Of a DNA stretch of 64,000 bases, positions 42,995 to 58,335 are shown in pieces (within the stretch, counting starts at the first letter, position 1; each line of letters begins with the position of its first letter). The position numbers and the translations under genes are program-made. The stretch lies in the NCBI GenBank assembly GCA_001563305.1, contig CP013703.1, positions 310,001 to 374,000 of the forward strand, written 5' to 3'. The DNA comes from a methanogenic archaeon mixed culture ISO4-G1 (GTDB lineage Archaea; Thermoplasmatota; Thermoplasmata; Methanomassiliicoccales; Methanomethylophilaceae). Under the pieces are notes generated by a model, which saw only the letters and a program-made list of their open reading frames with translations, ran no database searches and had not been told where the DNA came from.

Positions 42995-43067
42995 GCTCCT
43001 GTGGTGTAGCGGCCAATCATGAAGCCCTCTCGAGGCTTCAACACGGGTTCAAATCCCGTCGGGAGCA
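42995..43067 (+). tRNA. tRNA-Glu (CTC), likely integration site of the island
   Basis: GCTCCTG pairs with CGGGAGC. The anticodon arm is AAGCC-CTCTCGA-GGCTT with anticodon CTC, and the T arm is CACGG-GTTCAAATC-like GGGTTCAAATCCC. The discriminator is A and CCA is not encoded. A tyrosine recombinase gene lies directly downstream, the usual layout where an element has inserted at the 3' end of a tRNA gene. The second att copy is not in the window. Confidence 0.9.
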
Positions 43068-43199
43068 CTATTTTTTCCTCACCCAGATTCGAAAGTAGTA
43101 CTCCCCCCAGGTTGCACTACTCTTCCGAGCCCGTACTTCCGAAAAGGGGGTAATTTTGTTGGTGTTTTGGCGTGTTTCAGATCTCGGTTACCGACTCCA

Positions 43200-44147
43200 T
43201 CACCACTTCCCTTTGACATTCTTGATGCTCTTAGTTATGCGTCTTCTGCAATAGTAGGTGTTGGTGGTCTTCGTGGACGCGTGGCCCATGAGGTTCGACA
43301 CATCCTGCTCCTCGGCGTCGTTGTCGAGGTAATGCTGTCCGAAGGCTCTCCTGCAGTCGCGGAGCTCGAACTTCTGTCCGATGTCCCTCTCGACGTAGGT
43401 CTTGAGCTTCCTGATGGTGTTGCTCGACATCGCGCCGTGGTCGCCGTTCATGCTACAGAACAGCGCCGTCACGGTGGACGGGTGGACGCCGTGGGCGATG
43501 AGGAAGTCCTCCCTCGCCTTGAGGTAGTCCTTGACCACGGGGATGATCTCGTCGGGTATGGGAACGGGCCTCGGGTCGCCGTAGCTGTCCTCGCCCTTCA
43601 CATGCTTGAACCAGATCACCCACTCTTCCTGGTCGAGGTCATTCATCTCCGCGAGACGGAGCTCCTTGTTCCTCGCTCCGGTGCCACAGTACAGCAGGAC
43701 CAGGACGTAAGGCCTGATGGCCCTGAAGTCCTTGTGGTCCATGGTGTTGTACCTGTGGAGGATCAGCTTGTACGTGGCATCGGGAAGCGGCGGGAGCCTG
43801 CACTCCTTCTTGTCCACCGGCTTGAGGCCGGGGTACTTCGCGAGGCACTTCTGCACGCAGGTGTTGTCGCACATGGTGCAGAGCTGCCCCATCACCGCTA
43901 TGTCGTGGTTGACATCCGATGCGGACACTTTCTTGCCCTTGCGGTACACTACGAGCTCCTTGATGTCCTCGGGGAGCATCTTGGCGGGGGACATGGTCGT
44001 GACCCTGCCCTCCTCCTTGAGCCTGAGCATATCGCGTTCGATCCTCCTGAGCCTGGCCTTGGTCGTCTTGTATGTCTTTTCCGCTATGCAGCCGCGTTTC
44101 GCTTCCATCAGCTCAGCGGCCCTATCTCCAAACGGATTCGCAACCAT
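43200..44147 (-). CDS. Tyrosine recombinase / integrase
   Basis: The 315-residue protein has an N-terminal SAM-like domain (TYKTTKARLRRIERDMLRLK) with extra cysteines (CTMCDNTCVQKC), then the catalytic core. The first Arg is in GTGARNKELRLAEM and the Lys in FKHVKGED. The box II motif is LRDCRRAFG, where the usual HxxR is replaced by RDxRR as in several archaeal integrases. The second His is in MGHASTKTT and the nucleophile Tyr in TYYCRRR. It should integrate the island at tRNA-Glu. Confidence 0.9.
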   Translation of the reverse strand: MVANPFGDRAAELMEAKRGCIAEKTYKTTKARLRRIERDMLRLKEEGRVTTMSPAKMLPEDIKELVVYRKGKKVSASDVNHDIAVMGQLCTMCDNTCVQKCLAKYPGLKPVDKKECRLPPLPDATYKLILHRYNTMDHKDFRAIRPYVLVLLYCGTGARNKELRLAEMNDLDQEEWVIWFKHVKGEDSYGDPRPVPIPDEIIPVVKDYLKAREDFLIAHGVHPSTVTALFCSMNGDHGAMSSNTIRKLKTYVERDIGQKFELRDCRRAFGQHYLDNDAEEQDVSNLMGHASTKTTNTYYCRRRITKSIKNVKGKW

Positions 44148-47493: not shown

Positions 47494-48537
47494 TTATCTA
47501 TAATCATACCGATCGGATTCTGGATCACGGGTTTGATAATCCTCGATGGCACCAGCATTCTTTAAGGCATCAAGCATGCTGAGACCGACGTTATAAACGA
47601 CGTTGATAGCTACTGAATTACCAAAAAGACGATAGGCGGAGGTATCGGAAACGTTCGCATCAAAATCCCTTGGGAAGCCCTGCATTCTGGAAAATTCCCT
47701 CGGAGTCAATCTGCGGATGTCCTCGGAATTAATGGGCGTATGGATTCCTGTCGTGGGCGTGCGATCACCAACGAGTTTCTGATAAACCAGATTCCTCTCA
47801 CGACCCATGCCACCTGTCATAAGGGTGTTCCCAGGTCCCGAGGTGTCTAGAATAGCATAACTGTAACCTCTGCCCTTCTTCTTTTGTTCGACCTTATGAT
47901 TCTTGAGGCAATCCAGATAACCCTGTGATAGATAGTACCTGTTATCCACATGTTTTTCCAGAATGTAATCTATAGTACTGTGCTCGTCCCTATCCAATGG
48001 TTTGGGATAATCAAATGAACATATCCCCAAATCATCACGGAAACCAACTATGTAGACCCTCTCCCTCCTTTGAGGGACATTGAAGTCATAAGCGTTGAGA
48101 ACCTTAGGTTCGGGTACGAAGTAGTGGGCTTTCCTCAGACGGTCGAGAATATAATTCATGGTCTCTCCGCCCTTATGGGAACAGAGACCTTTAACATTCT
48201 CCAACAGAAATGCCTTGGGCTTGGTTTCCTCGATGATATCGGCAAGATAGTCAAACAGCTTGCCACGATCGTCATCAAATCCCAATCTGTTTCCAGCCAT
48301 GGAGAAGGCCTGACATGGGAATCCGGCAAGAAGAATGTCATAGGGCTCTGGCAGGACCTCATCACATTTTATGGTGGTAATATCACCGAGTGGATCATCT
48401 CCAAAATAATCCATATAGACCTTAGAGGCGACGGGGTCTTTCTCACAGGAATAGATGCATTCGCCCCCCAAGTCCTCGAATGCGATACGCATACCGCCAA
48501 CACCGGCGAAAAGGTCAATAAACTGGAAACAAGACAC
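47494..48537 (-). CDS. dcm: DNA cytosine-C5 methyltransferase
   Basis: The 347-residue protein has the C5-methyltransferase motifs in order: FIDLFAGVGG (I, residues 6-15), the catalytic loop GFPCQAFSM with Cys75 (IV), ENVKGL (VI, residues 113-118), QRRERVYIVGF (VIII) and FGNSVAINV (X). The target-recognition part between VIII and X is short, so the site cannot be read. It is the last gene of a defence-type operon with GHKL and Z1 proteins and would mark self DNA. Confidence 0.95.
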   Translation of the reverse strand: MSCFQFIDLFAGVGGMRIAFEDLGGECIYSCEKDPVASKVYMDYFGDDPLGDITTIKCDEVLPEPYDILLAGFPCQAFSMAGNRLGFDDDRGKLFDYLADIIEETKPKAFLLENVKGLCSHKGGETMNYILDRLRKAHYFVPEPKVLNAYDFNVPQRRERVYIVGFRDDLGICSFDYPKPLDRDEHSTIDYILEKHVDNRYYLSQGYLDCLKNHKVEQKKKGRGYSYAILDTSGPGNTLMTGGMGRERNLVYQKLVGDRTPTTGIHTPINSEDIRRLTPREFSRMQGFPRDFDANVSDTSAYRLFGNSVAINVVYNVGLSMLDALKNAGAIEDYQTRDPESDRYDYR

Positions 48538-48546
48538 TGGTTTACC

Positions 48547-49470
48547 TCATGTGGTGCTATTATATGATGATACCGGCGGAATGGAAACAGGGTGCATGCT
48601 CGACAAATTAATCGAATAACTGATTTTCTCAATGCATTCTGGTTTAACACCGTCTTTGAAATAATCTAGGATATTGGGAAAATTCTCGTCAATCCTATAA
48701 TCCAAAACCTCTAAGAGATGATACGACTTTGTTCTCAAACTCGTGTCCCTAATGTTCAACTTCCTGAGGTTCCGGTCGAGAATCTTGGGGTCAAATCCTT
48801 TGTTGATCAACTCCGAACATATGGAATCGATGGAATGGGGGCCAGAAGGATCCTCTTCAAATCTACAAAAGCAGAGATAATCCGCCTTATTCGCCTGGAA
48901 CTCCTCTGACATCGTGACTGTAGAACTATTGCGAGCGATAGTGGATTTGACCTCGAAATAGAGGCCTGATTTCTTGGAAGAAATGTCACAAACACTAGAA
49001 TTGGGGCCATCCCAACTCGGATCATAACCAAGGTCAATCAATCTACCGAGAGTATGGAGTTCCGCAATTACTTGATACGTGGAGGGGGAAACAGTAGCAT
49101 TACCCATCATTTCCTTCCACTTATCAAACCATTGTGAGGGATCACGACCAAGTTCATCACGATCGGTTTCCAACAATTTGATACAAATAGCAGTAAACTC
49201 CGAGGTGCAGTTCGGCACAGAACATGATAGAACGAAACCATTGGAGAATCCCGTTTTTGTTAGGACGGTTCTCGACTCTAGAACCATACCGGAACATGAT
49301 TCCCTAAAGGGCTGTGAGAAGTCGGAACGGACGAAAATGCCGTAATCAACATCTGATTTATAGTACAGATAATCTCCAGGGTATCCATCTATCGGAGCAG
49401 ATGGGCCGACCTGATCCTTGCCGAAGATATCGAAATAATCAATGATTTTATCGAAACAATCCACCATCAT
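48547..49470 (-). CDS. PD-(D/E)XK-motif protein of the DUF4420 (PF14390) type
   Basis: The 307-residue protein shows a restriction-endonuclease-like core: AELHTLGRLIDLGYDPSWDG (first acidic residue), VCDISSKKSGLYFEVKSTIA (Asp and Glu-x-Lys). This D...ExK pattern is the PD-(D/E)XK active site. The fold and the preceding long N-terminal part match the PD-(D/E)XK-motif family seen in Z1/GHKL restriction loci. It lies 10 bases upstream of the methyltransferase gene and overlaps its upstream neighbour by 4 bases. It probably cuts unmodified DNA. Confidence 0.82.
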   Translation of the reverse strand: MMVDCFDKIIDYFDIFGKDQVGPSAPIDGYPGDYLYYKSDVDYGIFVRSDFSQPFRESCSGMVLESRTVLTKTGFSNGFVLSCSVPNCTSEFTAICIKLLETDRDELGRDPSQWFDKWKEMMGNATVSPSTYQVIAELHTLGRLIDLGYDPSWDGPNSSVCDISSKKSGLYFEVKSTIARNSSTVTMSEEFQANKADYLCFCRFEEDPSGPHSIDSICSELINKGFDPKILDRNLRKLNIRDTSLRTKSYHLLEVLDYRIDENFPNILDYFKDGVKPECIEKISYSINLSSMHPVSIPPVSSYNSTT

Positions 49471-50207
49471 TCCACCTCATCAAACAAATGTAAAACATAG
49501 GTGTCCAGACCCTCGCTGTTCAATTCGGGTTCTAAGGTCTCCATCCGGACAAGGTTTAGGGCAAGTGCACGACTAAGAAGATTGCCCGGTTTCCTGCCGT
49601 CCATCAAACGATTGTGATATTCGAGCATAATTGCTCTGTAAATCTCGATGGGATAGCCATCGCTACCTGCACGCTCAACCAATTGTGAAATGTCATCAGA
49701 TTGATTCTTGGACAGTATGTCCTTGGTATGGGCTATTGGATTTATGCCATCATCCTGAAGGGAGATGAAGAAGTACCACCATAGCATGGCTGGATAAATC
49801 CTACGGGAATTAGCAAAGAATCTATCATCATGTGGGAGATCAAAACCACCTTTACTGAACCTTTCTATGATAATGTCTGGAATCACATTCATACTCAAAA
49901 ACACCCAGAATTCATCATCCGACGCATCTCTGGAGGTGAAACCGTATTGAGAGAGAGTGACGAAAATGGCTTCAGCCATATCGAGATCGACACCATATTC
50001 CCAAGAAACTGTGGTATATGACTTGGATTCCTTCTTTGCCATACAATCCCTGAATGTTGAAACAAGGCGCTCACGAATTGCCATATATTCGTTGGGCGGG
50101 GAGGGATTGCGAAATCTAGGGATCATTTCCCTGAAGAAATCCCTATCGGATCTCATCCTGCCCAGTAGCGCCTGGGCATCCATCTTACTCATTGTTTCCC
50201 ATTGCAT
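49467..50207 (-). CDS. Defence-locus protein of unknown function (possibly DUF6339-like)
   Basis: The 246-residue helical protein (MSKMDAQALLGRMRSDRDFF at the start, FFISLQDDGINPIAHTKDIL in the middle) has no catalytic motif. Its size, position and helical character fit the DUF6339-type proteins that accompany Z1 loci, but I cannot confirm that. Its stop overlaps the ATG of the PD-(D/E)XK gene (ATGA), and its own start abuts the previous stop, so it is part of one operon. Confidence 0.6.
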   Translation of the reverse strand: MQWETMSKMDAQALLGRMRSDRDFFREMIPRFRNPSPPNEYMAIRERLVSTFRDCMAKKESKSYTTVSWEYGVDLDMAEAIFVTLSQYGFTSRDASDDEFWVFLSMNVIPDIIIERFSKGGFDLPHDDRFFANSRRIYPAMLWWYFFISLQDDGINPIAHTKDILSKNQSDDISQLVERAGSDGYPIEIYRAIMLEYHNRLMDGRKPGNLLSRALALNLVRMETLEPELNSEGLDTYVLHLFDEVE

Positions 50208-51167
50208 TCAAACACCACCCAATAAACGACGAAGATTATACGCAATATCAGTCGGGTCCATGAGCGGGTCCTCCAACTTTTTTTCCAGGATATAGAGAAT
50301 GTAGTCACAGACGCTTCCATCTGAGATTCCATCAATGTTCCCATTGACCATATCTGACCAGATCTCACCATCGCTACGAAGACGAAGGATTACCTGTGCG
50401 ATGGCAGAACTGTAGATTTCGACCTTCAGAGATTGCTTCGCACGTTCTTTGGAATTAGTGCCCCAAACCTCCTTGAATCCCGGATAAGCCGAATTGATGC
50501 TAATGTGTACAGTTTCTAAGAAGCTATCGGAACGAGGGTCCTTCCAAGAGGTTTCAAGACGCCACAAGGGATCCGATGGGGATCTCCTTACGACAACGGT
50601 GGGGAATTCTGGAGAGCGATCATCGATGTAGACCTTGAATTCGAACAGTGAACCAAAAACGAAACCCTCGTTATTGGTGAAATATGGTATTTGCGGAGAT
50701 AAGCTCCTTTCCTTCAGATAGAGGATGCATCTGATAGAGAACGAACCGCGATAGACACCACGAGGCAAATTAATCGAGAAAACGAAGGACTCGGCCCTAC
50801 TGGATTGAGTCAATGATATAGGGGAAGGATGTACCGTTCTGGTGTTGGACTCCTTGGAAGCGATGACTATGGCCACACCGATGGAGGAATCTGGATTGGC
50901 GAGACCCTTATCCAGATCAAAAAGGCGAGATATATTGTCAAGAGAGAACCTAACCCCGATAATCAGGTCATGCGCACCCGGATCCCAATCCGAGCCCTTT
51001 CCTGGCAATTCGATGACTTCGTTATCCACATCATTTTTCCGGGGGATTCCGATAGGCTTGCCATCAAAACCTGAGTAGTGAAAAGTGAGCAATGGCTTCC
51101 CATCAAAAATCTGTTCCAGAAGCTCATTGGTCAGAGTATTGAAGAATGGAAATGTGATGTTACTCAG
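50208..51167 (-). CDS. Defence-locus protein, unknown, non-ATG start
   Basis: About 319 residues, rich in beta-type stretches (SFSIRCILYLKERSLSPQIP, FVFGSLFEFKVYIDDRSPEF, TVVVRRSPSDPLWRLETSWK), suggesting a beta-sandwich scaffold. No motif is visible. Upstream, the frame overlaps the GHKL gene, and no ATG, GTG or TTG lies at the junction. CTG at 51167 overlaps the GHKL stop as CTGA, the only coupling-type start. ATG at 51302 would overlap 138 bases. The start therefore stays open. Confidence 0.55.
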   Translation of the reverse strand: MSNITFPFFNTLTNELLEQIFDGKPLLTFHYSGFDGKPIGIPRKNDVDNEVIELPGKGSDWDPGAHDLIIGVRFSLDNISRLFDLDKGLANPDSSIGVAIVIASKESNTRTVHPSPISLTQSSRAESFVFSINLPRGVYRGSFSIRCILYLKERSLSPQIPYFTNNEGFVFGSLFEFKVYIDDRSPEFPTVVVRRSPSDPLWRLETSWKDPRSDSFLETVHISINSAYPGFKEVWGTNSKERAKQSLKVEIYSSAIAQVILRLRSDGEIWSDMVNGNIDGISDGSVCDYILYILEKKLEDPLMDPTDIAYNLRRLLGGV

Positions 51168-53131
51168 ACTACAACCCCCTTGTAGCTGACGGTCAGTACA
51201 GGCAAGACCATCTCTGAAATTGGACGGTCGACTACGATTGAGATCTCCACCTCTGTGTTGAACCTGCCAGAACTGATGTTGATCTGAGATTCGGATACCC
51301 AACTCAGAGAGAAACGCTCACCGTTGCTGGAACCCGACCTTGAAAGTGTTATCTCACAAGGTTTTTTCGTCCCATCCTCCTCAGTGAAGGAAAGGATGGT
51401 CAACGACCTGAACTTGATGGGGAACGCGGTCCCGATCTTCTCCCTCCACTGATCCGAATAAAGTATGGTGGAACCGGCTGAGGCCCCCAACGACAATGTA
51501 GCCATTTTCGAATTTCTGAATATCATTTTTCCAGTATGGATCACACCATCCGTAGTCTGAGAGCTCGAGCTGGGTTCAAAGAATACTCCCGCCCTCGGAC
51601 GCTTCGGCCCTGGTCTTGGAGGTTTGGGGCCATCGCCACCGCCAGAACGCTTCGTGGAAACATAGGATCCGCCCTCGGGAAAGAGTCTCTCCGCAACAAA
51701 GCGACCTTCGGTAGAACGAAGTCCTGCTACCCGGTCATTATCGGGGGATCTCAATTGGGATTGCAGCTTCTCTCTGATTTGCCTCTTAATGTTTTTAACC
51801 GGATTGATGGAGGTGGCCATCGTATCCTCCCAACCGCCATGGTTGGAAAGCTCGGTGGAGCGGACGTACTTTTCCAAGGACATCTCCGAACCGTCCTTCA
51901 TGGAAACCAGGGTATCTGCATCGGGATTCAGTCTGAATACGGCCAGGAGATAACGGTCGGAATTGATCTCTTGTATCCTCTCGAACTCTGGATCATTGAA
52001 GTTGAGAAACATACCAGGGCTGCGCGTATAGGTTACGATGGGTCTGTTGCCATCCTTTGAGTTGTTCTCGACATTGCACAAGACGTAGGGATCGTTGAAA
52101 AAGATGCCATCTTTGAAATCGTCGTAGGAATAGATGCCCCAAGCAAGCCAACCATAGAAATTGTTCTGATTGCCCTTGGGGATCGGTAGGACATTCTTGT
52201 TGGAAACGTCGAACGAATCATTGTAGAGATTCCTGAAGAGCCTGAAGAGGTTGTAATCCAGAGAGACCTTACTCGAATCGACGGTACATGTCAATCTTGG
52301 TTTACTGGAGACATCGTTGTCTAGTCTCGGGGAGAACCATTTCTGTACGAAGAAGTCAATGCATTTTGGAACGGAGGCCAACCAAGGCTTGTTCGGATCC
52401 AATTTGGAGGTCTCCCTCACATCCATGAGCAATGACTGTAAATCGACAGAGGGCATGATTATGAGGGTGCCGGTCTCCTCATTACCGAAAGGCAGCAGGT
52501 TGAAGCAATCCAGAATCGATACGATAGTCGATTCATCGTAGATCGGACCAATCTCATCCTCATCTAAGAAATCGCCGCCCCACATACTGAAACCAGACCA
52601 TCTGGTGATACCGACGTCGATCTCGTAGCCCCTGTGATTGACAAATATGGCATTCATTCTTGATTCAAAACCAGAGGGGGTATGAACACGGGAATAGAAG
52701 ATGACGAAACCTGAGCCTTGACGATAGAAAACGCTCTTGCCCTTGCCCCACATACCGCCCTGTGAACTGCTGTTCTTACCGGAACGACTGAACTCGGTAA
52801 GGAGGCCTCTATAATTGGCATTCTCATCACGTACGTCACCATTGAGACCAACAGTACCGGAATCGCGGATTGAAATGAAATTAGAAGGGTTGTCATTGAA
52901 CACCTGGGATAGCTCTGGAAAGATGGTGGAGATGGCAGGGATGTCTAACTGTCCGACGACGAAATCCATCTGAACAGATGAGGATCCAGGTTTGGCAGCA
53001 TCGAGGCTGTTCTGAACGGACTCACGAACAAGGGCCTCCAGCCTGGGAGTCTTCTTGTCCTCCTGTGCATTAATGATGCCTTCTGTGGATCCGTCTAGGA
53101 ATCTCTTACGTGCATGAATGACATTGATCAT
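51164..53131 (-). CDS. GHKL (MutL/MORC-like) ATPase
   Basis: The 655-residue protein carries the GHKL ATP site: ESVQNSLDA (N-box, Glu37, Asn41, Asp44), SIRDSGTVGL (G1, residues 88-96) and GGMWGKGKSVFY (G2/lid, residues 125-136). The C-terminal about 250 residues are unique to this type of protein. Such ATPases occur with Z1 proteins and methyltransferases in prokaryotic MORC-like restriction loci described by Iyer, Abhiman and Aravind (2008). It follows the Z1 gene with an ATGA overlap. Confidence 0.88.
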   Translation of the reverse strand: MINVIHARKRFLDGSTEGIINAQEDKKTPRLEALVRESVQNSLDAAKPGSSSVQMDFVVGQLDIPAISTIFPELSQVFNDNPSNFISIRDSGTVGLNGDVRDENANYRGLLTEFSRSGKNSSSQGGMWGKGKSVFYRQGSGFVIFYSRVHTPSGFESRMNAIFVNHRGYEIDVGITRWSGFSMWGGDFLDEDEIGPIYDESTIVSILDCFNLLPFGNEETGTLIIMPSVDLQSLLMDVRETSKLDPNKPWLASVPKCIDFFVQKWFSPRLDNDVSSKPRLTCTVDSSKVSLDYNLFRLFRNLYNDSFDVSNKNVLPIPKGNQNNFYGWLAWGIYSYDDFKDGIFFNDPYVLCNVENNSKDGNRPIVTYTRSPGMFLNFNDPEFERIQEINSDRYLLAVFRLNPDADTLVSMKDGSEMSLEKYVRSTELSNHGGWEDTMATSINPVKNIKRQIREKLQSQLRSPDNDRVAGLRSTEGRFVAERLFPEGGSYVSTKRSGGGDGPKPPRPGPKRPRAGVFFEPSSSSQTTDGVIHTGKMIFRNSKMATLSLGASAGSTILYSDQWREKIGTAFPIKFRSLTILSFTEEDGTKKPCEITLSRSGSSNGERFSLSWVSESQINISSGRFNTEVEISIVVDRPISEMVLPVLTVSYKGVVV

Positions 53132-55932
53132 ATTGACCTCATGTGAACATAGGGACTTCTTTCGAAATCATAATCTGATTTGACATCTCTGGGTAGGAAT
53201 ATGGTGGGGGACACAATGTCCTCAACGTAACCGTTCTTTCCATCCCGGCCGATAGTGGTAATGACCAGGGTTGCAGTTCTTTGCATATCCAACTGTTTGC
53301 GGATTCTGCAACGTTCATCCGGGCTGCCCTTGAGAAGGGATTCTAAACGTGCAGGTTCATCCTTAAGGATCTCTTTACACCTTTCAATATCCAGATCGAG
53401 GAGGAGGCTCTTCTTGTCCCTTACGGTTTTGAAGGTTAGGATATCTGCATTCATGTCAATGTAATCCCTCTGGACCATATTGATGTTGTATTTCCCACAA
53501 TATGTATGTGTGGCCTCGATTAAATCCGCGGATTTCCTCTCGGTTCCATATAGAACGATGTTGCAATCGACGAGTGTGGAATCATCATATTTGGATAGCC
53601 AATCGAGGAAGGAACCGAAGGAGTTTATGTTGCTCTCCTCCCCGTCCTTGGGGCGATCCAATGAATTGAGATATTCGGCTACGAGTTTGAAATCGACATT
53701 ACGGAAGATTAAGCTACTGCCAACGGGGGAAAGCTCAGGAGACTTGCCGCATGATTCTAATAGTTCTTCCGTGGAAGTTAAGTTGGAACGAAGACTATCA
53801 ACATTATTGAAGAAACGTGAGAAATACTTGTCCTTTGCAACAAAACCACCATTCTTATACGTCTTGACTGACGCTTTGGATTTGGATGGGGAGGTCAGTG
53901 ATTTCAACATACCTGATGCGGGGACATCCCTTATCCTGGCATAGTATTCCTTCGGATCAAGGCCCTCGGATTGATAACGTCTAATTTCTCTGAAAAGGGA
54001 TTCATTTATGATAGAAAGATCACAGAATGTTTTGTAGGTGACGGTGTCCATCCAGATCCTGGGAAGCAATTCATAGCCTACTCTAAAACCGAACCATCTG
54101 GCCATCTGGAGTAACGTATCCGCAGTTGTAGTCTTCCTAATGTAGTAAGTTGAGACGAGCCCCTCCAATGTCAAACCCCTCGACAGGGTCTGACCACCGA
54201 TGACGATGAATGCAGGCGTCTGCTTCAACACTTCAGGATGATCCTTTTTAGTGGGGTATATGATGCGACTGGTATAGTCATAATCGAGAACGCCTAACGA
54301 AATATTCTTCCCCTTACCATTATCGACACAATCATGGATTGTATCCGGAGTGTAGATGTGCCTCTTGTCCGAACCTTCGCGAACCTCCCTTATGTGTGTG
54401 AGACCGTTCGTTACGAGCATATCGATGATTGGACTAATGGTCTGATAATCGGGATAGTCCCTAATGTCCAGTCCATCGATCCCATCTCCATAATCGGGGA
54501 GTATGCTGAGGAATTTGGATTTTGTCAATGATTCTGTCTGGATTTTAAAAACATCAGAACAACGTTGGATCAGATCGGAACGTTCGTTGAGAATGTAATC
54601 CATGACGGCCTCATTCATTTTCTTATGCTCTTCTGTCTTAACATCGACATTTATGAGCATTGACACAGGTTTGCCGAATTGCCAATGTTTTAGGATGGCA
54701 ACACAGCAATAGAACCAGGCAATGGAGTCTTTCAGAGAACTTGGAAGAACAATCGGCACATTGGATTTCTTCTTGCTAACAATCTTGGCGATATCATCAT
54801 CGATGATGGTCACATGGGTGCCTAGACCATCATCCTGGCCATCGCCATAGAACTGTTTAAGGCCGAGATACAAAGAAGATGGAGTAAGGGCTGTGATGAA
54901 ATCTTTAGGATACAAACCCTTGCTCTCATTCAGAAGGTTGGCATAGGGTGTTGCCGTATACCCGATATAATTTACGGAACCGAAGGCATTAGCATACGGG
55001 ATTCCCTCCGGACTCTTGTTTTGAACTAGACAAAGGATCAAATCATTGATTCTTGACCTATCAACTGAGTCAACCTTGCTGCTATCGACGCTAGCCTGAT
55101 CGGATTCGTCATCGATGACAAGGAGATGGACTCTTTCCTTCTGAGGTATCTTATTGAGGCAGGAGATTACATTGCTCAACTGCGTGACATTCTTCTCAGC
55201 ATGATAGATGTAACAATCGCCAAACTTCAGGCAGATATCGTTCTTTGTTAGGAAATCTTTCGGACCTTTACGAGGATTAAGATAATGCCATCTGAAACGA
55301 AGGGGGTCTTCAGGATCGTCTTCGGAAGGGCGAAGGTCCCCCAACATTCTGAAGAGGGTCTGATCCATGAGATTATTGGTAAGACCAGTAAGAACAACAA
55401 AGAAATTCCATCCATTATCAGCGGCCATGGATATGAGGGCCTCCATATTGGCAGTCTTACCCGATTGAACATTACCAATGACTGCGCCACATACTGGTTC
55501 CCCTGATTTTGTGGATTTTTTCATCATCTCAATAATGTTTTTAGATGATGCTTTAAGATCTTCAATGTTGGAGAAATGCGAGTCCTCTAAGAGTGCCCTA
55601 TAATGGCCCCAGGCGGTGGATGGGTCATCATCGATGAAGCATTTGCTCCGTTCACCTTTGAAAAGTGTATTGATGTCAACTTCATAGTTAATAAACTCAA
55701 CCCTTTTCTGATAATCTATGCTTTCTTTTAGATATCTGACCAGAAGATCTTTCCCAACTCTTTTGATAAGAGCATCCAAAGACCCGTTAGCAAGTTGATT
55801 CTCTAAAGGAACATTGGAATTGATACTGGTAAGTACGGTATCATAATCGCAATTGAACAACTGGTTCAGAGTATCCAAGGCATTTTTGATGATAGGGATA
55901 TTAGCTTTTTCATCATCTGTATAGTTAGACAA
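53128..55932 (-). CDS. Z1-domain superfamily II ATPase
   Basis: The 934-residue protein has a Walker A motif GNVQSGKT at residues 153-160, a Walker B-like VIDDESDQASVD, SVNYIGYTATPYAN (motif III), and the Z1 block ending IGGQTLSRGLTLEGLVSTYY and TLLQMARWFGFRVGY with an arginine finger. The Z1 domain is known from restriction-like loci with GHKL ATPases. It is probably a DNA translocase that drives recognition or cleavage. It begins the minus-strand operon and diverges from vsr. Confidence 0.92.
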   Translation of the reverse strand: MSNYTDDEKANIPIIKNALDTLNQLFNCDYDTVLTSINSNVPLENQLANGSLDALIKRVGKDLLVRYLKESIDYQKRVEFINYEVDINTLFKGERSKCFIDDDPSTAWGHYRALLEDSHFSNIEDLKASSKNIIEMMKKSTKSGEPVCGAVIGNVQSGKTANMEALISMAADNGWNFFVVLTGLTNNLMDQTLFRMLGDLRPSEDDPEDPLRFRWHYLNPRKGPKDFLTKNDICLKFGDCYIYHAEKNVTQLSNVISCLNKIPQKERVHLLVIDDESDQASVDSSKVDSVDRSRINDLILCLVQNKSPEGIPYANAFGSVNYIGYTATPYANLLNESKGLYPKDFITALTPSSLYLGLKQFYGDGQDDGLGTHVTIIDDDIAKIVSKKKSNVPIVLPSSLKDSIAWFYCCVAILKHWQFGKPVSMLINVDVKTEEHKKMNEAVMDYILNERSDLIQRCSDVFKIQTESLTKSKFLSILPDYGDGIDGLDIRDYPDYQTISPIIDMLVTNGLTHIREVREGSDKRHIYTPDTIHDCVDNGKGKNISLGVLDYDYTSRIIYPTKKDHPEVLKQTPAFIVIGGQTLSRGLTLEGLVSTYYIRKTTTADTLLQMARWFGFRVGYELLPRIWMDTVTYKTFCDLSIINESLFREIRRYQSEGLDPKEYYARIRDVPASGMLKSLTSPSKSKASVKTYKNGGFVAKDKYFSRFFNNVDSLRSNLTSTEELLESCGKSPELSPVGSSLIFRNVDFKLVAEYLNSLDRPKDGEESNINSFGSFLDWLSKYDDSTLVDCNIVLYGTERKSADLIEATHTYCGKYNINMVQRDYIDMNADILTFKTVRDKKSLLLDLDIERCKEILKDEPARLESLLKGSPDERCRIRKQLDMQRTATLVITTIGRDGKNGYVEDIVSPTIFLPRDVKSDYDFERSPYVHMRSI

Positions 55933-56027
55933 GTAGACACCGGTGTGGGTGCATCAACCTATAGATATTTTAATTAACATAGGAGGGCGGAGAAAAAAAC
56001 TACTGTATCAGGGAGAATGACATTTTT

Positions 56028-56447
56028 ATGAACAAAAAGACACCGGAGGCCATTAATGAAGTCACATCCAGAGTGATGAAGTCCAATAAAGGACGGGATA
56101 CTGGACCAGAAAAGACAATAAGGGCAATACTGCGCGAGATCGGTTATCCGGGTTACAGAATGAATTGGAAAAAGGCACCAGGAAAACCAGATATAGCTTA
56201 TCCCGGAAGAAAAATAGCAATTTTCGTTAATGGATGCTTCTGGCATCGCTGTCCCACTTGCAATCTCCCTCTTCCTAAAACACACACAGATTTCTGGCAA
56301 AAAAAATTCCAAGACAATGTTGAACGTGACAGAAGGAACCTCGAGGAATTGTCATCCATGGGGTGGATGGTATTTACAGTGTGGGAATGCGAACTGAAAG
56401 ACCTCGAATCTTTGAAGTTAAGGCTTCAGGAATTTATGGATCAATGA
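56028..56447 (+). CDS. vsr: Very-short-patch repair (Vsr) endonuclease
   Basis: The 139-residue protein matches Vsr, which nicks at T/G mismatches formed by deamination of 5-methylcytosine. The core has VTSRVMKSNKGRDTGPEKTI, then GKPDIAYPG with the metal-binding Asp55, and FVNGCFWHRCPTC with the zinc/His cluster at residues 67-78, and FTVWECEL near the end. It lies divergent from the Z1 gene, 95 bases away, as often seen beside a cytosine methyltransferase. Confidence 0.93.
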   Translation: MNKKTPEAINEVTSRVMKSNKGRDTGPEKTIRAILREIGYPGYRMNWKKAPGKPDIAYPGRKIAIFVNGCFWHRCPTCNLPLPKTHTDFWQKKFQDNVERDRRNLEELSSMGWMVFTVWECELKDLESLKLRLQEFMDQ

Positions 56448-56920: not shown

Positions 56921-57598
56921 TCAGCGTTTCCCTTTGAAATTCCTAGGGCCGATGAGGAGTACCTTGGAGTCATCGGACCACGGCACTACCTCGTATCCGA
57001 GATCGGTGAAGGCCTCTGCTGCTTTGTGTTTCTTCCAGAAACAGTTCCCTTCGGATTCAAGGGTCAGACATATTATGGACAGTTCAGCCAGACCGCTGTC
57101 GTAAGCGTTCTTTTTAATCAGGCTGTCGATCCTGCCTACAAGCTCGTTGTCCTTGACATTCTGCTTCTTAGAATTCTTCTTGACAGTCTTGTTCATAGCA
57201 TTGGATACCTGATTGGAGAGTGTCGCAATGTTGTTCAGGAGATTATAGAGTCTGATGGCATCTTTCTTGTAGCTCGAACCCTCGTGGATCCTGAGGTCAT
57301 GGATGAAGTAATTGCGGTCCTTGACCGCCTGTTCCATTCCAGTGAAGATGATGTCGCCTTCGTCGTAAACGCTGCGGAGCTGCTTCACATTGATGCCGAA
57401 GGGTTTATTATCGAAATCGGCAAGGAACTCCGTGAGTTCCTCGTTGGATAACTTGCCGAGTTCGGGGATGAGCAACCTCATTCTGTCGATGAGGTTCAGC
57501 AGCCTGTAGTTCATACATCCGATACCGTAAAGCATGCTGTCGGCACTTACAGTTCCGGGGGAATCCGAGGCATTGAGCCAATCGTAAACTTCTTTCAT
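56921..57598 (-). CDS. HEPN-type RNase-like protein
   Basis: The 225-residue helical protein holds RNYFIHDL with Arg95-x4-His100, the R-x4-6-H signature of HEPN-type RNases. A conserved acidic/basic stretch precedes it (FTGMEQAVKDRNYF), as in HEPN toxins and Abi proteins. The second part is rich in Asn and Lys (MNKTVKKNSKKQNVKDNELV), possibly RNA-binding. It faces a CARF-winged-helix gene across a 65-base divergent promoter. Candidate toxin of a nucleotide-sensing or toxin-antitoxin pair; there is no proof of RNase activity. Confidence 0.68.
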   Translation of the reverse strand: MKEVYDWLNASDSPGTVSADSMLYGIGCMNYRLLNLIDRMRLLIPELGKLSNEELTEFLADFDNKPFGINVKQLRSVYDEGDIIFTGMEQAVKDRNYFIHDLRIHEGSSYKKDAIRLYNLLNNIATLSNQVSNAMNKTVKKNSKKQNVKDNELVGRIDSLIKKNAYDSGLAELSIICLTLESEGNCFWKKHKAAEAFTDLGYEVVPWSDDSKVLLIGPRNFKGKR

Positions 57599-57663: not shown

Positions 57664-58335
57664 ATGTCCTTCGATATTCACTTCTATAATATCGGCCAGA
57701 CTGCTGATACAGCGTATCAGGTGCTAAGATCCGACATGAAGATAAACAAGATGTATCTTCTTAACAATTTCGAACCGGCATACGTAAAGATAGAGGAAGA
57801 GATCACGAAAAAATTGAACGAAGTAGGAGTGAAGGACGTAAACAAACTGCCCATCGAGATACATGATTTCGACAACATCTACAAGGCCGTGATGGAAACG
57901 GCCAGGAAAGAGATGAAGGAGCACAACGGGAACGTGCGGTTCCATTTCAACATCACCATGGGCACGAGCATTGTGGTCAGTGCGGTGAGCTGCGCCGCAT
58001 ACACACTCGATGCGGACCTATACTACATACTGGAAGCCAAATACTCCAAGAAGCAGGAGGAAGAGCTCATTCAGATACCCTTGGACAACATATCTGAAGT
58101 CGAAAAGCTGAAGGGCCGTAAGAAGGTCCTCGAGACCTTCATGCAGTTCAAGACGAATGATAAACTGACGATAGAGGAGATGAGGTCCATCAACGGACCG
58201 AACAAACCAGAGCTGTCCGGACCCAACCTGTCTCGGCGTACGAGAGAGCTGCACAACATGGGTCTCATACAGAAGTCAGGCAGCAGCGAATGGTCGCTTA
58301 CAGATAAGGGCAGAAAAGCGATCAAGAGATTGTGA
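57664..58335 (+). CDS. CARF-domain protein with C-terminal winged helix
   Basis: The 223-residue protein begins MSFDIHFYNIGQTADTAYQV and has FHFNITMGTSIVVSAVSCAA at residues 94-113, a match to the CARF ligand-binding site (N-T-x-G-T pattern). Residues about 145-223 form a winged helix (LSRRTRELHNMGLIQKSGSS). Such CARF-HTH proteins sense cyclic oligoadenylates or related signals and control transcription in Csa3 or DUF6293-like groups. No cas gene or CRISPR array is near. It is divergent from the HEPN-like gene, so it may control it. Confidence 0.8.
   Translation: MSFDIHFYNIGQTADTAYQVLRSDMKINKMYLLNNFEPAYVKIEEEITKKLNEVGVKDVNKLPIEIHDFDNIYKAVMETARKEMKEHNGNVRFHFNITMGTSIVVSAVSCAAYTLDADLYYILEAKYSKKQEEELIQIPLDNISEVEKLKGRKKVLETFMQFKTNDKLTIEEMRSINGPNKPELSGPNLSRRTRELHNMGLIQKSGSSEWSLTDKGRKAIKRL

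What the first reader, a model, noticed from the sequence alone, without database searches (positions are those of the whole stretch)
47494..56447. Seven-gene Z1/GHKL restriction-like locus with Dcm and Vsr in a methanogen
The order Z1 ATPase, GHKL ATPase, unknown, unknown, PD-(D/E)XK protein, cytosine methyltransferase, with divergent Vsr, matches the MORC-like restriction loci described for bacteria by Iyer, Abhiman and Aravind. Overlapping starts (ATGA) show one operon. Two components (50208-51167 and 49467-50207) have no known activity. Its presence in an archaeal integrative island suggests cross-domain transfer.
Basis: partly seen in the sequence, partly recalled or inferred. Interest (0 to 1): 0.75.

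Follow-up and report, generated by a model that had tools for sequence, protein, structure and literature searches.

The report
ATP-driven restriction operon in a methanogen
A methane-making archaeon carries an intact seven-gene defence cluster, of a kind already predicted in bacteria but apparently never tested, that probably uses two ATP-burning proteins to drive a DNA-cutting enzyme which spares the host's own methylated DNA.

Summary
They are Z1 motor ATPase, paraMORC2-type GHKL ATPase, U1, U2, PD-(D/E)XK nuclease (DUF4420) and cytosine-C5 methyltransferase in one operon, plus divergent vsr. One junction was misread: U1 most likely starts at CTG, not ATG. The arrangement is widespread: 39 of the 80 best Z1 loci carry all seven families, and 57 of 58 testable loci have GHKL-U1-U2 in a row. 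It is not new. Iyer 2008 described the operon type, Puigbo 2017 a Corynebacterium example, and Miller 2022 called it a putative defence system (Type I), untested. New here: (1) in five Bacillota loci the nuclease slot holds a PLD/B3 enzyme of the CglI/NgoFVII type, tying the cluster to CglI, whose DEAD-Z1 motor powers ATP-dependent cleavage; (2) related GHKL-x-U2 triads (PADLOC candidate PDC-M33) occur without Z1 beside 5mC methyltransferases, some with B3-type restriction enzymes, so the triad looks separable; (3) confident models of U1 (Ig-like sandwich plus helices) and U2 (all-helical); (4) archaeal copies nest among Bacillota in trees, supporting cross-domain transfer. Most likely an ATP-dependent, methylation-gated restriction complex. 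New member of a known kind.

The parts
53128..55932 (-). Z1 protein, 934 aa: DEAD-like SF2 ATPase + Z1 domain (motor)
   Evidence: Pfam Z1 E=4.1e-44; PADLOC MzaC 7e-40 and Helicase_II 2e-30; motifs GNVQSGKT, IDDESD, YTATP, DTLLQMARWFG conserved
51164..53131 (-). GHKL ATPase, 655 aa, paraMORC2-like
   Evidence: GHKL motifs E37xxQN, D90xGTVGL, GGxxGxGK, GT222 conserved; ExxxH E427/H431 in 66 of 66 aligned relatives; PADLOC PDC-M33A 6.4e-10
50208..51167 (-). U1, 319 aa, CTG start; Ig-like beta-sandwich + helical C-terminal part
   Evidence: AlphaFold2 pLDDT 90.3, pTM 0.66; Foldseek E=3.7e-4 to RhoGDI, TMq 0.23; Z 7.7 to PDE6D over 120 residues; start codon
49467..50207 (-). U2, 246 aa, all-helical, DUF6339-related
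   Evidence: pLDDT 92.8, pTM 0.90; DUF6339 in 19 of 40 relatives; profile match to PDC-M33C-type proteins, probability 98.9
48547..49470 (-). R: PD-(D/E)XK nuclease, DUF4420, 307 aa
   Evidence: PF14390 7.6e-9; E137, D162, E173, K175 in 69 of 69 relatives
47494..48537 (-). Cytosine-C5 DNA methyltransferase, 347 aa
   Evidence: TIGR00675 278 bits (cut-off 100.65); M.HhaI 1.6e-62 over residues 4-320
56028..56447 (+). Vsr mismatch endonuclease, 139 aa, divergent
   Evidence: TIGR00632 120 bits (cut-off 97.85); E. coli Vsr 1cw0 3.8e-24
55933..56027 (.). 95-bp divergent intergenic region between the Z1 gene and vsr (likely promoters)
   Evidence: sequence; promoter function inferred
43200..44147 (-). 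Tyrosine integrase beside tRNA-Glu(CTC) 42995-43068: edge of the element
   Evidence: PF00589 2.6e-16; tRNA; 62% identical integrase at the same tRNA in G192

Best explanation
It is an ATP-dependent, cytosine-methylation-gated restriction-modification system that works like CglI with an extra GHKL module. Shown by sequence: all enzymes are intact, the genes form one operon, and the cassette is conserved as a set. Inferred: the C5-methyltransferase protects a host sequence. On unprotected DNA, the nuclease subunit R (PD-(D/E)XK) recruits the DEAD-Z1 ATPase, which dimerises through Z1 and translocates on ATP, as the CglI N/H subunit does. The paraMORC2 GHKL protein closes as an ATP-driven dimer clamp and, with U1 (Ig-like adaptor) and U2 (helical scaffold), holds DNA or a second complex so that cutting is licensed only after the motors meet. 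Vsr repairs T:G mismatches made by deamination of the system's own 5-methylcytosine.
For: Motor plus swappable nuclease: in 5 of 5 inspected loci that keep Z1-GHKL-U1-U2 but lack DUF4420 (L010, L012, L014, L034, L047), the ORF between U2 and the methyltransferase matches RE_NgoFVII, the PLD domain of the CglI/NgoAVII-type nuclease (E 4.8e-15 to 3.4e-20), with a B3-like domain match at E<=0.1 in 4 of 5, two of them over Pfam's cut-off; the five group at 100 support. CglI's DEAD-Z1 subunit is a double-stranded-DNA-dependent ATPase needed for cleavage, dimerising through Z1 (PMC4267653, passages; PMC5737866, abstract). A C5-methyltransferase lies near the cassette in 52 of 54 loci and Vsr in 38 of 54. 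GHKL-U1-U2 are consecutive in 57 of 58. Active-site residues are invariant or nearly so. Precedent for a GHKL ATPase and a PD-(D/E)XK nuclease both being needed for defence: VcSduA, E27A and K557A both abolish it (PMC12137116, passages).
Against: No activity of this system or of any triad member has been shown. R carries no recognised target-recognition domain, so where specificity resides is unknown. R, GHKL and Z1 have no credible relative among solved structures by sequence. U1 and U2 roles rest only on fold and position. 16 of 54 loci lack a nearby Vsr. Related GHKL-x-U2 triads occur without Z1, so the triad is not simply a subunit of the Z1 motor.
Confidence: 0.62

Rival explanations
1. 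It is an MZA-type system (mzaABCDE) or a derivative that kills or halts the infected cell, rather than a self-sufficient restriction enzyme.
For: Z1 is related to MzaC (166 bits) and R weakly to MzaD (25 bits); MzaE/AIPR lies beside archaeal copies L007, L141 and L142.
Against: Scores are far below NCBI's equivalog cut-offs (1500 and 420 bits). No AIPR in the locus or anywhere in the window's genome. Z-R-AIPR loci form a different part of the Z1 tree.
Confidence: 0.12
2. Two neighbours: an ordinary Dcm-Vsr pair next to an unrelated ATP-dependent nuclease complex that recognises something other than missing methylation.
For: Dcm and Vsr vary in position and strand; in L007 Dcm is on the other strand; 2 of 54 loci lack a nearby methyltransferase and 16 of 54 a nearby Vsr.
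Against: A methyltransferase is near the cassette in 52 of 54 loci; here the gene starts 9 nt after the nuclease gene on the same strand.
Confidence: 0.12
3. A methylation-dependent (Type IV-like) or mismatch-repair device in which paraMORC2 plays the part of MutL with Vsr.
For: MutL, MutH and Vsr precedent argued in PMC2292703; GHKL and Vsr co-occur in many loci.
Against: 16 of 54 loci have no nearby Vsr; the R slot can hold a PLD-B3 restriction nuclease; sporadic distribution does not suit housekeeping repair.
Confidence: 0.08

Closest known systems
Putative defence system Type I of Miller et al. 2022 (PMC9523054, section 11 read)
   Same: Z1 protein of 925 aa, PD-(D/E)XK protein, C5-methyltransferase and three further genes, strongly associated with DNA repair endonucleases; here 934-aa Z1, DUF4420 nuclease, methyltransferase, GHKL+U1+U2, and Vsr
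   Different: They report it across the bacterial kingdom and give no mechanism; this copy is archaeal. Their supplementary sequences were not compared
Third operon type and paraMORC2 of Iyer, Abhiman and Aravind 2008 (PMC2292703, parts 1-3 of 4 read)
   Same: SFII helicase with DThhQXuRhFG, RE-fold protein with E-D-ExK, paraMORC, Dcm, Vsr; ExxxH motif
   Different: The passages I read do not describe the U1 and U2 proteins
Corynebacterium diphtheriae BH8 island (Puigbo et al. 2017, PMC5379612, passages)
   Same: Z1 helicase, Dcm, DUF4420, three unclassified proteins
   Different: Also an EcoRII-like REase gene; Dcm fused to an HTH domain
CglI / NgoAVII ATP-dependent restriction systems (PMC4267653 passages; PMC5737866 abstract)
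   Same: DEAD-Z1 ATPase + nuclease + methyltransferase
   Different: Three genes only; nuclease is PLD+B3; no GHKL, U1 or U2
MZA (mzaABCDE)
   Same: Z1 (MzaC) and PD-(D/E)XK (MzaD) relatives
   Different: AIPR (MzaE) absent; scores far below equivalog cut-offs; per PMC9523054 MzaA is a sigma factor, not looked for here
PADLOC candidate PDC-M33 (A, B, C)
   Same: M33A is a GHKL protein and M33C is related to U2; same gene order GHKL-x-U2
   Different: Found here without Z1; U1 versus M33B-type proteins not established

Membership tests
Iyer et al. third operon type (Z1/paraMORC RM) | SFII helicase with C-terminal DThhQXuRhFG motif | tested here: met
   DTLLQMARWFG, residues 605-615; D605, Q609, R612 and FG in 83-84 of 85 relatives
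Iyer et al. third operon type (Z1/paraMORC RM) | RE-fold protein with E-D-ExK | tested here: met
   E137, D162, E173, K175 in 69 of 69 relatives; PF14390
Iyer et al. third operon type (Z1/paraMORC RM) | Dcm and Vsr in the neighbourhood | tested here: met
paraMORC2 | GHKL ATP-binding motifs plus ExxxH in the S5 region | tested here: met
   68-69 of 69 for the key GHKL residues; ExxxH 66 of 66 aligned, 3 truncated rows uncovered. The S5 fold itself was not tested
MORC proper | GhXhhpXXRhl motif | tested here: not met
   0 of 70 sequences
Miller 2022 Type I | Z1 + PD-(D/E)XK + C5-MTase + three further genes | tested here: met
   gene content against the text of section 11
Miller 2022 Type I | sequence identity of their three further genes with GHKL, U1, U2 | not testable with these tools
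MZA | MzaC and MzaD equivalog scores | tested here: not met
   166 of 1500 bits and 25 of 420 bits
MZA | AIPR protein (MzaE) | tested here: not met
   none in the window's genome
CglI-type ATP-dependent RM | DEAD-Z1 motor ATPase | tested here: met
   Pfam Z1 and SF2 motifs
CglI-type ATP-dependent RM | PLD-B3 nuclease subunit | tested here: not met
   window R is DUF4420; the PLD/B3 form occurs in five relatives
CglI-type ATP-dependent RM | ATP-dependent cleavage at an unmethylated site | not testable with these tools
   needs biochemistry
PDC-M33 | M33A, M33B, M33C homologues | tested here: inconclusive
   A: 6.4e-10, partial; C-type: hhalign probability 98.9; B-type: probability 4.4, E=0.009, controls E=0.49 and 0.1

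The most novel reading that the evidence does not exclude
The GHKL-U1-U2 triad is a self-contained, transferable ATP-driven licensing module that plugs into several different restriction chassis: DEAD-Z1 motor with a PD-(D/E)XK nuclease, DEAD-Z1 motor with a CglI-type PLD-B3 nuclease, and motorless 5mC systems with B3-type restriction enzymes. If so, one module imposes the same checkpoint on mechanistically unrelated cutters, and bacteria and archaea share it.
Probability: 0.35. Interest if true: 0.65.

Novelty: new member of a known kind. Interest (0 to 1): 0.42.

Why it matters
The system has been predicted or noted at least three times (2008, 2017, 2022), and the papers I found report no test. 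The nuclease swap with CglI gives it a concrete, testable mechanism. The separable triad gives a handle on what prokaryotic relatives of MORC ATPases do, an open question that bears on the origin of eukaryotic MORC silencing proteins. The archaeal copies show that the whole cassette has crossed domains.

Tried and rejected
Rejected: 'MORC' as a label for the GHKL protein (MORC S5 motif in 0 of 70); MZA membership (no AIPR). SWIRM on U2 (19.0 bits against 28.6) is a sub-threshold hit in 1 of 40 relatives.

Led nowhere: viral contigs gave no relative of the GHKL protein. Plasmids gave none for the window's GHKL or U1 and one weak hit for a Pseudomonas GHKL. No solved structure matches Z1, GHKL, R or U1 by sequence (one spurious miniprotein hit for R); U2 hit only a designed protein (E=0.0023). 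U2's fold search gave nothing better than E=1.6, and VIA Z at most 6.4, mostly over residues 169-246. For U1, Z 7.7 is within the range the tool calls common. Att-site duplication: no direct repeats of 16 bp or more in 42.9-64 kb; the only other genome match to the tRNA end has 2 mismatches. U1 against PDC-M33B-type proteins: not significant. The far end of the island was not found; synteny past the window is rearranged.

Literature: one search returned only irrelevant papers (journal codes such as mzac). Other searches. The statement that I found no experimental test rests on these.

Limits: the 80 loci are the best-scoring ones of a capped scan seeded with archaeal Z1 proteins and two short patterns, one of them Walker A, so they over-represent this cassette. 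Trees are quick searches with SH-aLRT support only. HMM thresholds were set by me. Exceptions: L075 has GHKL and U2 but no detected U1; L036 and L066 have Z1 with none of the other families detected. Survey counts include genomes that supplied model rows or were already known (G303, G309, G311, G000, G025, G107).
Full report
OBSERVATION. The operon reads, on the minus strand, Z1 (55932-53128), GHKL (53131-51164), U1 (51167-50208), U2 (50207-49467), nuclease R (49470-48547), cytosine-C5 methyltransferase M (48537-47494), with vsr divergent at 56028-56447. Pfam, NCBIfam and PADLOC place Z1, R, M and Vsr firmly; U2 is a sub-threshold DUF6339; GHKL and U1 have no Pfam match. All reading frames are intact with no in-frame TAG, which matters because some methanogens read TAG as pyrrolysine (recalled), and the locus has 45% GC against 57% for the first 43 kb of the window. 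The host has methyl-coenzyme M reductase. At GHKL/U1 the overlap is CTGA: the only in-frame ATG, GTG or TTG upstream is a TTG 135 bases away inside the GHKL gene, whereas CTG coincides with the start position of relatives such as L007.

ACTIVE SITES. Aligning every relative found in the 80 scanned loci plus L006-L008, the Z1 ATPase residues (Walker A, DDE-x-D, TATP, R-W-F-G) are kept in 82-84 of 85 relatives, the GHKL N, G1, G2 and G3 residues (glycine 92 excepted, which varies) in 66-69 of 69, and E137-D162-E173-x-K175 of R in 69 of 69. The Walker A figure is partly circular because the scan used that motif. Vsr keeps D55 but has V67-N68 where E. coli has Thr-His; position 68 is N in 6 of 56 aligned relatives, H in 23 and D in 23.

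RELATIVES. Within the phylum, 4 of 292 genomes carry a GHKL relative, the window's own included. Three neighbourhoods were read: L006 has all seven genes; L007 has all seven plus an AIPR (MzaE) gene; L008 has a GHKL triad with Vsr, methyltransferase and a restriction enzyme with a B3-like domain but no Z1 or DUF4420. A genome scan with the Z1 alignment kept the best 80 of 551 confirmed loci. With HMMs iterated on these loci, 39 of 80 carry Z1, GHKL, U1, U2, R, M and Vsr (39 of 80 exactly this set, 41 with extra families); many contigs are short. Of 58 loci with GHKL and more than 3 kb beyond it, 57 have GHKL-U1-U2 consecutively; of 54 with enough flank, 52 have M and 38 have Vsr within 4 kb. 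Two gene orders dominate: Z-G-U1-U2-(M)-R and Z-R-G-U1-U2. Z-R and Z-R-AIPR loci without the triad form a separate group.

NUCLEASE SWAP. Five Bacillota loci (L010, L012, L014, L034, L047) have Z1-GHKL-U1-U2-M but no DUF4420. In each, the ORF between U2 and M matches RE_NgoFVII, the PLD domain of that restriction enzyme family (E 4.8e-15 to 3.4e-20), and four of the five also match its B3-like DNA-binding domain at E<=0.1, two of them (L010, L047) over Pfam's cut-off. These five form one branch at 100 support, sister to all other loci of the order Z-G-U1-U2-R in the four-gene tree. CglI, the characterised relative, consists of a PLD-B3 nuclease and a DEAD-Z1 ATPase; ATP hydrolysis of about 170 per second and per monomer is required for cutting, and Z1 mediates dimerisation (PMC4267653, passages); the enzymes communicate along DNA by translocation (PMC5737866, abstract). 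This is the strongest support for the mechanism proposed: the Z1 protein is a motor and the R slot holds an exchangeable cutter.

THE TRIAD AS A MODULE. A survey with a U2 profile found it in 7 of 400 genomes of the host's class (all in the host's family, 4 genera), 3 of 398 Bacillota and 5 of 398 Pseudomonadota, counts that include genomes already known. Of ten neighbourhoods fetched from these surveys and, five have Z1 (L141, L142, L148, L149, L150) and five do not (L143, whose contig ends beside U2, and L144-L147). The Z1-free triads are PADLOC's candidate PDC-M33: L145 matches M33A, B and C at 3.6e-196, 2.6e-83 and 7.4e-81; L144 at 9.1e-90, 7.3e-38 and 4.7e-36; L147 matches only M33A, at 3.7e-22; of L146 only the middle protein was submitted (M33B, 2.7e-40). 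L145's neighbour is a full PLD-B3 restriction enzyme, L008's carries the B3-like domain. U2 is homologous to the third protein of these triads (profile probability 98.9, E 1e-17). For U1 against the second protein the comparison is inconclusive (probability 4.4, E 0.009 over 144 columns; controls E 0.49 and 0.1 over 30 and 17 columns).

FOLDS. U1 (42-row alignment): pLDDT 90.3, pTM 0.66; a beta-sandwich resembling RhoGDI and PDE6D (Foldseek E 3.7e-4 but TM 0.23 of the query; VIA Z 7.7, rmsd 3.3, 120 residues), then a helical part. Such Ig-like sandwiches are common, so this says adaptor at most. U2 (40 rows): pLDDT 92.8, pTM 0.90, all helical, no convincing match. Invariant residues are F188-P189, W202 and N225 in U1 (W61 and G168 in 90% or more) and D74, W101, R116 in U2.

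ORIGIN. In the Z1 tree the window pairs with L006 (100) inside a 32-row, Bacillota-dominated clade (100), while L007 sits with two Bacteroidota (97). In a four-gene tree rooted on the other gene order, four archaeal loci fall with three Bacillota/Mycoplasmatota loci (94, not starred) inside a larger starred clade (96) that excludes five Bacillota loci. Archaeal copies thus nest in bacterial diversity; bacteria-to-archaea transfer is the simpler reading, but the window's branch is long (1.41), so it is not recent from any sampled donor. A tyrosine integrase sits beside tRNA-Glu(CTC). The same-genus genome G192 has the same tRNA, a 62% identical integrase and homologues of window 44.4-47.4 kb, but homology ends at about 47405, 89 bases short of the methyltransferase's stop, and its cargo is a large DEAD-type helicase ORF with a C-terminal nuclease-like motif. 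So the locus is probably cargo in a hotspot; the second attachment site was not found.

WHAT IS KNOWN. Iyer et al. 2008 (parts 1-3 of 4 read) described this operon type and proposed DNA looping by paraMORCs. Puigbo et al. 2017 (passages) saw a Corynebacterium island with Z1, Dcm, DUF4420 and three unclassified proteins. Miller et al. 2022 (section 11 and passages) reported a putative defence system whose Type I has the same gene content, across bacteria, without mechanism. The locus is therefore a new, archaeal member of a known kind.

Noticed in passing
window 57664-58335 (+) and 56921-57598 (-): A CARF-HTH protein (PADLOC CARF3 2.7e-25, Pfam HFX_2341_N 3e-8) lies just past vsr, divergent from an unknown 225-aa ORF: possibly a second signalling or regulatory defence piece.
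   Followed up: no
L103 8526-11033: The sister genome's element at the same tRNA-Glu carries a large DEAD-type helicase ORF with a nuclease-like C-terminus (Type III Res-like by eye) where the window has the Z1 locus: a defence cargo hotspot.
   Followed up: partly
L142 8835-18051: An archaeal copy with Z1 and GHKL each split in two ORFs and AIPR in four: decaying copy or assembly errors.
   Followed up: no
window 51167: U1 appears to start at CTG in a CTGA overlap, with a GGGGG stretch about 8 bases upstream; a rare start codon.
   Followed up: partly
L017 4003-18145: Chlorobiaceae locus with two triads and two nucleases flanking one Z1 gene.
   Followed up: no
L009, L013, L015, L019, L028, L029, L031: Two methyltransferase genes in or beside the cassette, as would suit an asymmetric target site.
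   Followed up: no
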